Origin: Arthrobacter sp. NIO-1057
GTDB lineage: Bacteria > Actinomycetota > Actinomycetes > Actinomycetales > Micrococcaceae
DNA: 64,000 nucleotides
Reading direction: 5' to 3'
Assembly (NCBI RefSeq): GCF_900094805.1
Contig: NZ_FMAT01000006.1
Location: 62,001 to 126,000 of the forward strand
Shown piece by piece: positions 16,464 to 24,880 of this stretch. Below the pieces are notes generated by a model. It ran no database searches and was not told the DNA's origin. It saw nothing but the letters and a program-made list of their open reading frames with translations. How positions within the stretch are numbered: position 1 is the stretch's first letter; each line of letters starts with the position of its first letter. The translations under genes were made by a program, and so were the position numbers.

Positions 16464-16537
16464 GGGCGTATAGCTCAGGCGGTTAGAGCGCTTCGCTGAT
16501 AACGAAGAGGTCCCAAGTTCAAGTCTTGGTACGCCCA
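16464..16537 (+). tRNA. tRNA-Ile (GAT)
   Basis: A 74-nt cloverleaf. Acceptor arm GGGCGTA pairs with TACGCCC, the anticodon loop CTGATAA has anticodon GAT, and the T-arm contains TTCAAGT. The CCA end is not encoded. A tRNA-Ile/tRNA-Ala pair after gyrA is common in actinobacteria. Confidence 0.97.
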
Positions 16538-16566
16538 CGGAAACCTTGCTAGAGGGAAAGAGGAAA

Positions 16567-16686
16567 ATGAAAAAGTTCCTGGTTCTCGCAACGATTGCGA
16601 CTGCTGCGGTAGTCTTGGTCAAGAAAGCAAAGGCTTCTTCGGAAACAAAGGAAACCTGGCATCAGGTAGCCGATAAAGTTTCCTAA
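16567..16686 (+). CDS. DLW-39-type small protein
   Basis: A 39-codon gene between tRNA-Ile and tRNA-Ala. The product has a start-proximal basic residue pair, a hydrophobic stretch (residues 4-18, FLVLATIATAAVVLV) and a short polar tail ending WHQVADKVS. Length, layout and tRNA-flanked position match the actinobacterial DLW-39 family, although the DLW tripeptide itself is replaced (ETW). A clear AAAGAGGA ribosome-binding site precedes the ATG. The function is unknown; it is probably a membrane-anchored peptide. Confidence 0.75.
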   Translation: MKKFLVLATIATAAVVLVKKAKASSETKETWHQVADKVS

Positions 16687-16693
16687 AGCTTTT

Positions 16694-16766
<73 letters not shown>

Positions 16767-16778
16767 CAAAAAAGACTG

Positions 16779-16811
16779 GCGGAAAGCATCAGCTTTCCGC
16801 TAATTCTTTTT
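16779..16811 (+). terminator. Terminator after tRNA-Ala copy 1
   Basis: GCGGAAAGC-ATCA-GCTTTCCGC forms a 9-bp stem with a 4-nt loop, followed by TAATTCTTTTT. A clear intrinsic terminator. Confidence 0.88.
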
Positions 16812-16858
16812 GATTGGTTCGTCATGGATCGATCGGTGGAAACACTAAAACTAAATAC

Positions 16859-16931
<73 letters not shown>

Positions 16932-16939
16932 CAAGAACA

Positions 16940-21254: not shown

Positions 21255-22109
21255 ATGTCCTACGGGCAGATAAACCCACAGGGCCAAGCAGCACCGACGT
21301 GTTACCGACACCCAGACACCGTGTCGTACATTTCGTGTCACCGATGTGAACGCCCGATCTGTCCTCAATGCCAGGTTTCAGCTCCGGTGGGAGTGCAGTG
21401 CGTTGAATGTGTTGCCCAGGCCAATAGAAGTCTCCCAACGCAAAAGACCGAATTTGGTGGCAGGCTTCGCGCAGGAGCCCCGTTGGTGACCTATGTGGTC
21501 ATCGCACTGAACGTATTCGTCTATCTTTTGCAGTGGATAATCCCCGGATTCACCAATTCACTGGTTCTGGCACCAGCCATTGCAGCTTATGAACCATGGC
21601 GACTGATTACTAGCGCCTTTGCACACTCCACAAGTTCATTCCTGCACCTAGCCATGAACATGTACGGCATCTACATTTTTGGCACGCTGCTCGAGCCAAA
21701 ACTGGGCAGACTACGTTTCACGTGGTTGTACCTTCTAAGTGCTTTTGGTGGCTCACTGGGCATCTTATTGCTCAGCGCACCGTTGAGCGCTACTTTGGGC
21801 GCCTCCGGAGCTTTGGCAGGGCTCTTCCTTGCCACCTTTGTCGTCTTCCGCTCTAACAAGCAGGCGCTACGCCAAATGGGTATCATTCTGGCTTTGAACG
21901 TTGTCCTTGGCTTTGTTGTTTCGGGAATCTCTTGGCAGGGTCACCTAGGCGGCGCAATCACCGGAATTCTCGCTGCATGCTGCATCGTGCTGATTCCACG
22001 AAGTAATCCACAACGAGCCAAGACGCAGTTGCTTCTTCTTATTGCCCTGTCAGTCCTCCTCGTAGGTGCGTTGTACTTTGCCATGGAGACAGCCAAGTAC
22101 ACCGGCTAG
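21255..22109 (+). CDS. Rhomboid family intramembrane serine protease
   Basis: Membrane-embedded protease that cleaves transmembrane helices. The protein is 284 residues. The N-terminal 55 residues form a cysteine-rich zinc-binding (B-box-like) module with Cys at about 16, 28, 31, 36, 39, 49 and 52, common in actinobacterial rhomboids. Six to seven membrane segments follow. The catalytic serine is in GASG (about Ser-184) and the catalytic histidine in WQGHLGG (about His-230). The substrate is unknown. It follows ppiA and precedes the DnaA-box-rich gap. Confidence 0.92.
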   Translation: MSYGQINPQGQAAPTCYRHPDTVSYISCHRCERPICPQCQVSAPVGVQCVECVAQANRSLPTQKTEFGGRLRAGAPLVTYVVIALNVFVYLLQWIIPGFTNSLVLAPAIAAYEPWRLITSAFAHSTSSFLHLAMNMYGIYIFGTLLEPKLGRLRFTWLYLLSAFGGSLGILLLSAPLSATLGASGALAGLFLATFVVFRSNKQALRQMGIILALNVVLGFVVSGISWQGHLGGAITGILAACCIVLIPRSNPQRAKTQLLLLIALSVLLVGALYFAMETAKYTG

Positions 22110-22148
22110 TCATTCGAATACGCTCCAAACCGTTATCCACACAGATTA

Positions 22149-22173
22149 TCCACACTGTTAATAACTTACATGC
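22149..22173 (+). repeat. 25-bp direct repeat, copy 1 (DnaA-box cluster)
   Basis: TCCACA followed by CTGTTAATAACTTACATGC. It matches 22415-22439 with one mismatch in 25 bp. The repeat runs from inside a DnaA box into an AT-rich element, and continues here into the imperfect palindrome TTACATGCGTGTAA. Confidence 0.85.
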
Positions 22174-22205
22174 GTGTAACTTGCGGGAGTGAGGAGATAT
22201 TAACA

Positions 22206-22237
22206 CCCCTGGTTTCCCTAGAAACCAGGGGTTTTCT
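22206..22237 (+). terminator. Terminator of the rhomboid gene
   Basis: CCCCTGGTTTC (22206-22216) pairs perfectly with GAAACCAGGGG (22221-22231) around a 4-nt loop, followed by TTTTCT. A strong intrinsic terminator embedded in the DnaA-box cluster. Confidence 0.9.
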
Positions 22238-22414
22238 GCTTAGAATGCTCAATACTCACAACTTTGTCCCCATCTGTGGATAACTTTTAAACAACCCCTG
22301 TAGACAGTGCATATACGAACAGCCAAGTTGTTAATAACTGCGGATTCGAAAATTTAACCGATGACAGTGAACTCTAGGATAATGTGGATATAAACCTATT
22401 ATCCACAAGTGAAA

Positions 22415-22439
22415 TCCACAGTGTTAATAACTTACATGC
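22415..22439 (+). repeat. 25-bp direct repeat, copy 2 (DnaA-box cluster)
   Basis: TCCACA followed by GTGTTAATAACTTACATGC, 24 of 25 bases identical to 22149-22173. It continues into the near-palindrome TTACATGCATGTGA. A third, shorter copy of the core (TGTTAATAACT) is at 22329-22339. Confidence 0.85.
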
Positions 22440-22593
22440 ATGTGATTTGAGTGTACTAAACAGTAGTTGACAAGGCATTTTGGCGGAAACTACGGAATAT
22501 CCTCGTCAATATCCCCACCTGTGGATAAGTTTGTGAACAACTGTTTGTAAAAGTTGTTCACATCTTATGTGGATAACCCGCGATAGTTGTGGA

Positions 22594-23211
22594 TTACATG
22601 GTGAAAACTGGCCAGATCAGCAGAATCGCAAAGAATGACATCAAGAGGCCAATGATCACGTCAAGTACTTGCCACGCCTTTGGTTTAGCGAAGAGCGGTG
22701 CGAGGAAGCAAGCAGCATAGGCCAACGCGAAAAACCATATGAGACTCGCACCGATGGCGCCCAGCGCGAACCATCGAGCGCCCGTGCCCTGGGAAACCGC
22801 TACTGAGCCCAACAACAGTACAGTGTCTATATACACGTGTGGATTCAGCCAAGTGAGTGCAAGCGTCGTTAAGATAACCGCCGGCACACCTGTAGTCTGG
22901 TTAGCCCCAGAGAACTTGAGTGAGTCAGGTTTGATCGCCCTACGGAAAGCAAACACGGCGTAGGTGCCCAGAAATAGGAAACCTCCGAGTCTCGCTGCAA
23001 CCAGCAGCCATGGAACGCGTTCAACAAGAACACCCATGCCGCCAACGCCTGCAAAAATCAGGACAGCATCGGAGAGAAAGCAGACAAGAGCGGTAACGAA
23101 AACGTGTTCTCTTCTGATTCCTTGGCGCAGAACGAAGGCATTCTGAGCACCGATCGCCACGATCAGCGATAGTCCGGTGGTAAAGCCGAAAAATAAAGGT
23201 GCAACGGTCAT
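22594..23211 (-). CDS. LysE/ArgO-family basic amino acid exporter
   Basis: Membrane exporter for lysine/arginine-type amino acids. The 205-residue protein has about six hydrophobic segments and family motifs (LIVAIGAQNAFVLRQGIRREH at the N-terminus; ALTWLNPHVYIDTVLLLGS in the middle). It starts with ATG at 23209-23211 and is divergent from the LysR-type regulator with 70 bp between them, matching the LysG-lysE and ArgP-argO pairs of C. glutamicum and E. coli. Regulation by that neighbour is inferred. Confidence 0.92.
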   Translation of the reverse strand: MTVAPLFFGFTTGLSLIVAIGAQNAFVLRQGIRREHVFVTALVCFLSDAVLIFAGVGGMGVLVERVPWLLVAARLGGFLFLGTYAVFAFRRAIKPDSLKFSGANQTTGVPAVILTTLALTWLNPHVYIDTVLLLGSVAVSQGTGARWFALGAIGASLIWFFALAYAACFLAPLFAKPKAWQVLDVIIGLLMSFFAILLIWPVFTM

Positions 23212-24166: not shown

Positions 24167-24194
24167 TCCTGTTACAGGCCACGAATGCCTGAAG

Positions 24195-24235
24195 CCCGGA
24201 CGAGGGAGCCGTACCCGGAGCGCGACAAGACGGCC
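24195..24235 (+). ncRNA. Guanidine-III riboswitch (ykkC-III)
   Basis: The sequence carries the conserved pieces of the ykkC-III motif in order: CCGGACGAGG (24196-24205), GCCGTACCCGG (24208-24218), then ACAAGACGGC (24225-24234). CCGG (24196-24199) can pair with CCGG (24215-24218), and GCCGT (24208-24212) with ACGGC (24230-24234), giving the H-type pseudoknot known for this guanidine sensor. It ends 18 nt before the start codon of an SMR exporter gene, the expected regulated gene. Just downstream, CCAGA (24234-24238) and TCTGG (24247-24251) could form a hairpin with the AAGGA ribosome-binding site in its loop, overlapping the aptamer 3' strand. Translational control is inferred. Confidence 0.93.
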
Positions 24236-24252
24236 AGAGAAGGAAATCTGGC

Positions 24253-24570
24253 ATGTACTGGACCGTACTGATTATTTCTGGTGTTTTTGAGGCCGTTTGG
24301 GCCGTCGCACTCGGGGCGAGCGAAGGATTCTCGAAAATCGTTCCGACAATCATCTTCTTTGCCGGCTTGATTGTGTCCATGGCTGGCTTGGCATACGCAA
24401 TGAAAGAGCTTCCGGTGGGTACTGCCTACGCGATTTGGGTCGGAGTTGGAGCGTCACTCGCGGTGATCTATTCCATGATCACCGGTCAGGAAGCATTCTC
24501 TGTTCTGAAGATGGCGTTAATCCTGGGGCTGATTGGCTGTGTCATTGGGCTTAAGGCCGTTAGCCACTAG
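24253..24570 (+). CDS. gdx: SMR-family guanidinium exporter (Gdx/SugE type)
   Basis: Four-helix antiparallel dimeric proton-coupled exporter. At 105 residues, it has the essential glutamate at residue 13 (GVFEAVWAVAL) and the SMR motif ELPVGTAYAIWVGVGA. The guanidine-III riboswitch immediately upstream indicates guanidinium as the physiological substrate rather than quaternary-ammonium drugs. It is a single gene followed by a bidirectional hairpin shared with crgA. Confidence 0.93.
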   Translation: MYWTVLIISGVFEAVWAVALGASEGFSKIVPTIIFFAGLIVSMAGLAYAMKELPVGTAYAIWVGVGASLAVIYSMITGQEAFSVLKMALILGLIGCVIGLKAVSH

Positions 24571-24622: not shown

Positions 24623-24880
24623 CTATTTCCAGCCTGTGGTCATGAAGAACCCGACCATCGCGATGCCAAAACCGATCACGATATTCCAACCGCCAATGTT
24701 GGGGATGGGGAACAGGGTCTGGGACAGGTAGTAAACGATGATCCAGAGTAGTCCCAGGAGCATAAGGCCAAACATGACCGGCTTGTACCAACCCGGCATT
24801 GGCTTATCAATAGCGTGAGCGCTTTGTCGCTCGGCTTGGGCCTGTGTTGATTTCTTGCGTCGTGGTTTTGACTCCGGCAC
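24623..24880 (-). CDS. crgA: Cell division protein CrgA
   Basis: Actinobacterial divisome protein that recruits or modulates FtsZ, FtsI and peptidoglycan synthases. The 85-residue protein has a basic cytoplasmic N-terminus and two membrane helices separated by the conserved short loop LFPIPNIGGWN. It starts with GTG at 24878-24880. Its place between the gyrase region and the pknB operon is the same as in mycobacteria. Confidence 0.95.
   Translation of the reverse strand: MPESKPRRKKSTQAQAERQSAHAIDKPMPGWYKPVMFGLMLLGLLWIIVYYLSQTLFPIPNIGGWNIVIGFGIAMVGFFMTTGWK

What the first reader, a model, noticed from the sequence alone, without database searches (positions are those of the whole stretch)
22110..22593. 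DnaA-box cluster richer than the classical oriC gap, 15 kb from dnaA
A 484-bp non-coding gap between convergent genes has six perfect TTATCCACA boxes, two TTGTTCACA and four one-mismatch forms on both strands. The dnaA-dnaN gap has two perfect boxes and one TTGTTCACA. Boxes are arranged in close pairs (start-to-start 12-14 bp: 22133/22146, 22520/22532, 22554/22568). A long convergent gap is otherwise rare in this compact region. It could be the real or an auxiliary origin, a datA-like titration site, or a DARS-like reactivation site.
Basis: partly seen in the sequence, partly recalled or inferred. Interest (0 to 1): 0.85.

Follow-up and report, generated by a model that had tools for sequence, protein, structure and literature searches.

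The report
Ancient DnaA-binding site beside rhomboid gene
Next to a rhomboid protease gene, this bacterium and many relatives keep a conserved cluster of binding sites for the replication starter protein DnaA, joined to a palindrome that otherwise sits near a gene of a regulator family tied to cell division, so it may help control when chromosome copying starts.

Summary
The rhomboid-lysE gap holds 6 of the 22 perfect TTATCCACA sites in the 3.54-Mb genome; shuffles give 0.008. Boxes lie there in 18 of 18 genomes of the genus and densely, within 1.4 kb 3' of rhomboid, in 33 of 36 informative Micrococcaceae regions. In 16 other families of the order 18 of 30 genomes have strict boxes there, none in the upstream control, even with rhomboid 141-220 kb from dnaA. 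The element goes with rhomboid, not with dnaA.

It is a composite: DnaA boxes abut a palindrome, TTACAY-N2-RTGTAA. Of 21 perfect palindromes in 18 genus genomes, 10 lie at this element, 10 about 120 bp upstream of a whiB-family gene, 1 elsewhere; 6 genomes have none.

Best reading: a DnaA-regulating site (datA/DARS class) with an unknown partner, probably not the origin. The raw GC-skew switch at the cluster is confounded by gene direction. Mechanism and partner are untested.

The parts
22110..22593 (.). whole element: non-coding convergent gap with DnaA boxes and two palindromes
22133..22141 (+). DnaA box TTATCCACA; exact in 14 of 18 genus genomes
22146..22154 (+). DnaA box TTATCCACA; exact in 17 of 18; first half of composite 1
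22156..22165 (+). TGTTAATAAC, at the place where several other genera carry an inverted DnaA box (TGTGGATAAC or a close variant)
22166..22179 (+). palindrome TTACATGCGTGTAA (presumed site of unknown factor X), copy 1
22205..22232 (+). terminator-like hairpin 3' of rhomboid; by eye not conserved in the genus alignment
22275..22283 (-). DnaA box TTATCCACA; exact in 18 of 18
22329..22338 (+). TGTTAATAAC without palindrome
22399..22407 (+). DnaA box TTATCCACA; exact in 9 of 18
22422..22431 (+). TGTTAATAAC of composite 2, behind AAATCCACA
22432..22445 (+). palindrome TTACATGCATGTGA (one mismatch), copy 2
22520..22528 (-). DnaA box TTATCCACA; exact in 17 of 18
22532..22540 (-). DnaA box TTGTTCACA; exact in 18 of 18
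22554..22562 (+). TTGTTCACA; exact in 2 of 18, not conserved
22568..22576 (-). DnaA box TTATCCACA; exact in 13 of 18
21255..22109 (+). rhomboid-family gene; boxes lie 3' of its relatives across the order
24623..24880 (-). crgA-like division gene (NCBIfam CrgA models, E 2e-22, below their curated cut-offs); convergent neighbour of the element in many relatives, here displaced by lysE, lysR and an SMR gene

Best explanation
The gap is a conserved regulatory DnaA-binding element of the datA/DARS functional class. DnaA assembles on closely spaced boxes next to a palindromic operator for a dimeric factor X, which would play the part that IHF or Fis play at the E. coli sites. The complex changes the pool of initiation-competent DnaA, most likely lowering it after initiation by titration or ATP hydrolysis. 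In most Micrococcaceae it lies about 14-20 kb from dnaA and would be copied right after initiation. X may also act at a site upstream of a whiB-family gene, so the element could tie initiation control to that regulator. Shown here: the boxes, their conservation and linkage, the palindrome and its distribution. Inferred: DnaA binding, the existence of X, the sign of the effect, the link to division.
For: Boxes far beyond chance. Mean column conservation in 18 genus genomes: boxes 0.90, TGTTAATAAC 0.94, palindromes 0.84, rest of the gap 0.65. 33 of 36 informative Micrococcaceae regions have at least 4 relaxed boxes in 600 bp within 1.4 kb 3' of rhomboid. 18 of 30 genomes of 16 other families have strict boxes in the 600 bp there: 30 boxes against 0.075 expected, none in the upstream control, one inside a rhomboid match. 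The palindrome (at most 1 mismatch) lies within 900 bp 3' of rhomboid in 24 of 36 family genomes; four more occur in the 37 regions, and three of these are in DnaA-box clusters (one is the rhomboid cluster of G148 just beyond the limit, two are displaced clusters in G059 and G126). In the genus 10 of 21 perfect palindromes are at the element and 10 before whiB. Flanking genes converge here; a crgA-like ORF faces rhomboid in 30 of 55 order and class loci. DnaA-box clusters that repress untimely initiation are reported for B. subtilis and S. coelicolor (passages of PMC5742627, PMC4585315).
Against: No binding or genetic data exist. 12 of 30 order genomes have no strict box (3 have no relaxed one either), and 23 of 34 order loci lack the palindrome at 1 mismatch. 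Outside the order 5 of 21 loci have strict boxes, 0 of 21 the palindrome, and family f19 has 0 of 5. Three family genomes lack a dense cluster at rhomboid (G031, G061, G126). Six of the eight boxes vary in at least one genus genome. Six of 18 genus genomes have no perfect palindrome anywhere. In 16 of 36 family genomes a crude ORF call puts a + strand ORF next after rhomboid, so the gap is not convergent in every lineage. X is unidentified. A distance of 38-220 kb from dnaA in some families weakens the early-duplication argument.
Confidence: 0.55

Rival explanations
1. The cluster is the working origin (or a second part of it) in Micrococcaceae, and the dnaA-dnaN gap serves mainly dnaA autoregulation.
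For: Richer in boxes than dnaA-dnaN (11 against 5 relaxed sites per 600 bp in the own genome), lower GC (40.1 against 45.4%) and the most AT-rich 60-bp stretch of the three gaps (0.70 against 0.67 and 0.68). Raw cumulative GC-skew minimum at +17.8 kb in two near-identical genomes; mean skew over 19 genomes: left -0.020, dnaN-to-cluster -0.014, right of the cluster +0.037.
Against: Mean fourfold-site skew is negative on the sense strand in all 21 orthologue sets, so + strand genes before and mainly - strand genes after the cluster mimic a switch. Minima in single genomes scatter: of the first 19, 11 lie at +15 to +19.3 kb and 8 at +2.3 to +10.6 kb; the other 18 run from -2.7 to +37 kb. Three genomes (G041, G043, G068) have positive skew between dnaN and the cluster. 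40 kb between dnaA and rhomboid in two other families was inconclusive. No run of 3 or more DnaA-trio units in any of the three gaps. Kocuria oriC is predicted at dnaA-dnaN with a DUE and trios (PMC12500396 passages).
Confidence: 0.15
2. A DARS-like site that reactivates ADP-DnaA, promoting rather than restraining initiation.
For: Conserved box spacing and a second conserved site recall DARS2 (boxes plus IHF and Fis sites; PMC5742627 passages).
Against: Sequence does not separate datA from DARS activity; the E. coli three-box core geometry was not tested here.
Confidence: 0.15
3. A chromosome-structural or segregation site at which DnaA and X bind, with no effect on the DnaA pool.
For: Long-lived intergenic site with two site types and conserved linkage to rhomboid.
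Against: Nothing here supports it directly; no search for segregation sites was run.
Confidence: 0.08
4. A transcriptional control region for a flanking gene, or a known RNA.
For: 4 promoter-like matches (shuffles 1.4) and a terminator hairpin. In 16 of 36 family genomes the next ORF by a crude call runs +, so a promoter is possible there; I raised this reading from 0.05 to 0.07 for that reason.
Against: Here the flanking genes converge, and a crgA-like ORF faces rhomboid in 30 of 55 order and class loci. No Rfam match in the gap.
Confidence: 0.07

Closest known systems
Streptomyces coelicolor DnaA-box clusters (D78 and others, Smulczyk-Krawczyszyn et al. 2006)
   Same: Actinobacterial DnaA-box cluster near oriC that represses untimely initiation (as cited in PMC5742627 and PMC4585315 passages). 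The name D78 and its affinity data are recalled; the original is not held.
   Different: No palindromic partner site is known to me there.
Bacillus subtilis oriC-proximal DnaA-box clusters (Okumura et al. 2012)
   Same: Clusters near oriC that restrain initiation (as cited; original not held).
   Different: Different phylum and loci; a shared second palindrome is not known to me.
Escherichia coli datA
   Same: DnaA-box cluster with one extra site for a bending protein (PMC5742627 passages).
   Different: datA uses IHF; here the partner site is TTACAY-N2-RTGTAA, also found upstream of a whiB-family gene.
Escherichia coli DARS1/DARS2
   Same: Boxes in fixed spacing plus a regulatory part for other proteins.
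   Different: ADP-DnaA reactivation untested; core geometry not compared.
Paired DnaA boxes bound in E. coli (Stringer et al. 2024)
   Same: DnaA prefers two boxes spaced 2-3 bp apart (PMC11317965 passages); the element holds close pairs.
   Different: Here the three close pairs are 3-5 bp apart, two in the same and one in opposite orientation; the composite of many relatives has an inverted pair 1-2 bp apart next to a palindrome.
BldM operator, with whiB a direct target in Streptomyces venezuelae
   Same: A palindrome of a regulator that activates whiB (PMC4125116 passages).
   Different: The BldM consensus TCACcCgnncGgGTGA is another sequence; X is not BldM on this evidence.

Membership tests
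datA-type locus | Non-coding cluster of DnaA boxes outside oriC | tested here: inconclusive
   non-coding cluster met; that it lies outside oriC rests on dnaA-dnaN being oriC, which was not proven here
datA-type locus | Site for a DNA-bending partner (IHF in E. coli) | tested here: inconclusive
   a conserved palindrome is present, but its protein is unknown; no IHF-site scan was run
datA-type locus | Stimulates DnaA-ATP hydrolysis or titrates DnaA; deletion causes over-initiation | not testable with these tools
   needs a mutant and biochemistry
DARS | Three-box core with the E. coli spacing, box I opposite to II and III | not tested
   core geometry described in PMC5742627; no comparison run
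DARS | ADP release from DnaA | not testable with these tools
   needs purified DnaA
oriC | DnaA-box cluster | tested here: met
oriC | AT-rich unwinding element and DnaA-trios beside a box | tested here: inconclusive
   maximum AT per 60 bp 0.70 against 0.67 in dnaA-dnaN; no run of 3 or more trio units in either
oriC | GC-skew switch at the site | tested here: inconclusive
   raw minimum is near it in the own genome and in 11 of 19 but confounded by gene direction; 40-kb test unclear
oriC | Autonomous replication or marker-frequency peak | not testable with these tools
   experiment
oriC-proximal DnaA-box cluster (S. coelicolor, B. subtilis type) | Lies close to oriC, taken as dnaA | tested here: met
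   about 15 kb from dnaA in the window and 14-20 kb in most Micrococcaceae, but 38-220 kb in several other families
oriC-proximal DnaA-box cluster (S. coelicolor, B. subtilis type) | Deletion causes untimely or more frequent initiation | not testable with these tools
   experiment

The most novel reading that the evidence does not exclude
An order-wide replication-control element in which DnaA and one dedicated DNA-binding protein X sit side by side. In Glutamicibacter X would have essentially two strong target places in the genome: this element and the region upstream of a whiB-family gene (with one mismatch allowed the own genome has three more sites, one of them the second copy in the element). 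X would then physically couple the DnaA pool to a WhiB-type regulator in non-sporulating actinobacteria.
Probability: 0.35. Interest if true: 0.85.

Novelty: new variant of a known kind. Interest (0 to 1): 0.72.

Why it matters
How actinobacteria limit replication to once per cycle is poorly known; I know of no Hda/SeqA counterpart there (recalled). A 484-bp site with conserved geometry, traceable over an order that includes easily grown bacteria (recalled), gives a direct handle: delete it, measure initiation. The palindrome offers a way to fish out its partner and to test a link between initiation and a WhiB-family regulator. It also warns against reading raw GC skew as an origin call where gene direction changes near the presumed origin.

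Tried and rejected
1. Origin from GC skew: the raw minimum sits by the cluster, which first looked like strong evidence for a displaced origin. Fourfold-site analysis showed C-rich synonymous sites on the sense strand, on average, in all 21 orthologue sets, so the switch can follow gene direction. I withdrew the argument. 2. Skew of four 10-kb pieces between dnaA and rhomboid in two other families gave -0.002, -0.013, -0.024 and +0.030: inconclusive. 3. In some searches the gene 24253-24570 was labelled crgA by guess; it is an SMR transporter. The crgA-like gene is 24623-24880 on the minus strand. A tblastn for crgA used the wrong gene and its empty result says nothing. 4. BldM and BldD as X: the BldM consensus differs; the BldD consensus is recalled only (paper not held), with similar half-sites and a one-base shorter centre. 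5. Rfam: nothing in the gap. 6. Literature searches for an earlier description, all in the open-licence library: DnaA box + cluster + datA + Streptomyces ('datA' also matched 'data'), DnaA boxes + S. coelicolor + D78 (18, none), DnaA box cluster + Arthrobacter (19, none), Arthrobacter + oriC + dnaA + GC skew + replication origin (31), DnaA boxes + Micrococcus luteus + oriC (37), replication origin + DnaA boxes + distant from dnaA + actinobacteria (40), Smulczyk-Krawczyszyn (44; 25 of 54 listed), DnaA box + crgA (65), DnaA-box clusters + Actinobacteria + datA (66, mostly noise), whiB/GTGTAA/TTACAC/DnaA box/rhomboid (75, noise). No listing showed this element; most subscription journals are missing, and of the papers opened I saw passages only.

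Full report
WHAT IS THERE. The window is G000:C11:62001-126000 of a 3,541,821-base genome. Between rhomboid (+, 21255-22109; PF01694) and a LysE-type exporter (-, 22594-23211; PF01810) lies a 484-bp non-coding gap of 40% GC. It has six perfect TTATCCACA boxes and two TTGTTCACA. Dinucleotide shuffles give 0.008 perfect boxes (1000 shuffles, maximum 1). The whole genome has 22 perfect boxes, six here and two in dnaA-dnaN. On the own 178-kb contig the densest 600-bp windows hold 11 relaxed sites (here), 9 (upstream of dnaB, 56 kb left of dnaA), 5 (dnaA-dnaN) and 4 (dnaA upstream); windows away from these hold at most 1.

CONSERVATION IN THE GENUS. Rhomboid was found in 18 of 18 genus genomes, the own included, each with 3 to 6 perfect boxes beside it, in most at near-identical spacing (alignment). 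The mean frequency of the commonest letter is 0.90 in box columns, 0.94 in three TGTTAATAAC copies, 0.84 in the two palindromes and 0.65 in the rest of the gap. Boxes 22275- and 22532- are exact in 18 of 18, 22146+ and 22520- in 17, 22133+ in 14, 22568- in 13, 22399+ in 9 and 22554+ in only 2.

CONSERVATION IN THE FAMILY. A 25-base piece (box plus TGTTAATAACTTACA, up to 3 mismatches) hits 81 of 295 Micrococcaceae genomes in 11 of 32 genera; the backwards control hits none. I fetched the dnaA region of 37 of these 295 genomes, chosen by me for contig position and genus spread. One, G035, ends before rhomboid. In 33 of the other 36 a 600-bp window with at least 4 relaxed boxes lies within 1.4 kb 3' of the rhomboid match. 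The exceptions are G031, G061 and G126; G126 has a 5-box cluster 12 kb further on. In G163, where rhomboid is inverted, the cluster is still at its 3' end.

CONSERVATION IN THE ORDER AND CLASS. I took 30 of the 119 genomes of 16 other families of the order listed and read 600 bp 3' of their best rhomboid match; orthology was not proven for the partial matches. Strict boxes (TTRTYCACA) occur in 18 of 30, relaxed ones in 27 of 30. There are 30 strict boxes against 0.075 expected, none in the first 600 bp of each locus and one inside a rhomboid match (L184). In the class, of 25 further loci (among the best matches of 118 genomes; 4 from the same order) 7 have strict boxes, 5 of these among the 21 outside the order; family f19 has 0 of 5. 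Rhomboid lies about 141 kb from dnaA in G346 and about 220 kb in G369, both with strict boxes. So the element goes with rhomboid, not with dnaA.

A SECOND SITE. Reading these loci showed a palindrome beside the boxes. As TTACAY-N2-RTGTAA with at most one mismatch it is found 3' of rhomboid in 11 of 34 order loci (12 sites against 0.03 expected) and 0 of 21 other class loci, and within 900 bp in 24 of 36 family genomes. Four more lie elsewhere in the 37 regions: one in the rhomboid-linked cluster of G148 just beyond the 900-bp limit, two in displaced DnaA-box clusters (G059, G126), one alone (G173). Stacking 55 family sites (at most 2 mismatches, genus included) gives TTaTCCACA-n-TGTtaAtAAC-TTACA-nncn-TGTaATTc. 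In several genera (g25, g12, g11, g8 among them) the middle reads like TGTGGATAAC, that is, an inverted DnaA box. Glutamicibacter has TGTTAATAAC there.

THE PALINDROME'S OTHER PLACE. In the own genome the perfect palindrome occurs twice: in the element, and between a gene of the WhiB family (PF02467) and a divergent TIGR03089 gene, so either gene could be its target. With one mismatch there are three more sites, one being copy 2 in the element; the backwards control gives two sites at that setting. In 18 genus genomes there are 21 perfect copies in 12 genomes: 10 at the element, 10 at 118-123 bp upstream of the matched WhiB frame, 1 elsewhere (G017:C26). Six genomes have none; the backwards control has one site, in G011. 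The own genome and G004 are near-identical and not independent. That this WhiB is the whiB2/whmD orthologue is recalled from synteny; no call named it.

IS IT THE ORIGIN? The raw cumulative GC-skew minimum is at +17.8 kb from dnaA in the own contig and in G004, and the mean skew of 19 genomes turns from negative to positive across the cluster. But fourfold-degenerate sites are on average C-rich on the sense strand in all 21 orthologue sets, left or right, + or -. The genes before the cluster run almost all +; after it most coding length runs - in the own genome, and pknB and pknA run - in every relative where they were found. Gene direction alone could give this picture. Minima in single genomes scatter: of the first 19, 11 lie at +15 to +19.3 kb and 8 at +2.3 to +10.6 kb; the other 18 run from -2.7 to +37 kb. 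Four 10-kb samples in two other families decide nothing. No DnaA-trio run of three units was seen in any of the three gaps. The Kocuria origin in print is a prediction at dnaA-dnaN (PMC12500396, passages). I leave 15% to the origin reading.

HOW IT PROBABLY WORKS. Here the flanking genes converge, and a crgA-like ORF faces rhomboid in 30 of 55 order and class loci; by a crude ORF call the next ORF is - in 20 and + in 16 of 36 family genomes. A promoter role is therefore unlikely in this genome but not excluded everywhere. Boxes plus a partner site match the build of datA and DARS2 (PMC5742627, passages). DnaA-box clusters near oriC restrain initiation in B. subtilis and S. coelicolor (PMC5742627, PMC10950094 and PMC4585315, passages; originals not held). 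In E. coli DnaA prefers box pairs 2-3 bp apart (PMC11317965, passages). I therefore propose a DnaA-regulating complex with a dedicated partner X, more likely restraining than promoting initiation; the sign is a guess from those precedents. The X site upstream of whiB suggests, but does not show, a link to division control.

LIMITS. All evidence is sequence. Samples were chosen by me or by rank, not at random. One search gave no loci for 30 further class genomes, which ended the survey.

Noticed in passing
L060:11916-12365 (C11, about 56 kb left of dnaA; outside the window): Another DnaA-box cluster, 9 relaxed sites, directly upstream of dnaB (DnaB helicase, L060:10455-11858 minus). G004 has a 9-site window at about -63 kb from dnaA. 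Possible DnaA control of dnaB.
   Followed up: partly
window 24182-24238 with 24253-24570: Guanidine-III riboswitch directly upstream of a small multidrug resistance gene: a probable guanidine exporter, between the element and the crgA-like gene.
   Followed up: no
G148 -8750, G246 -8550, G193 -7900 relative to dnaA: Further DnaA-box clusters (5 to 7 relaxed sites, up to 5 perfect) left of dnaA in some genera.
   Followed up: no
G059 about +25.5 kb, G126 about +28.6 kb from dnaA: DnaA-box clusters carrying the same palindrome away from rhomboid: the composite element seems to move or duplicate as a unit.
   Followed up: partly
window 22298-22304 and 22345-22362: CTGTAGA (at least 0.94 conserved in the genus) and, by eye, a TTCGAA..TTTAA block inside the gap; not explained.
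   Followed up: no
window 16464-16932: tRNA-Ile(GAT), then two tRNA-Ala(TGC) genes 165 bp apart with equal Rfam scores, between the gyrA operon and a glycosyltransferase-like gene.
   Followed up: no
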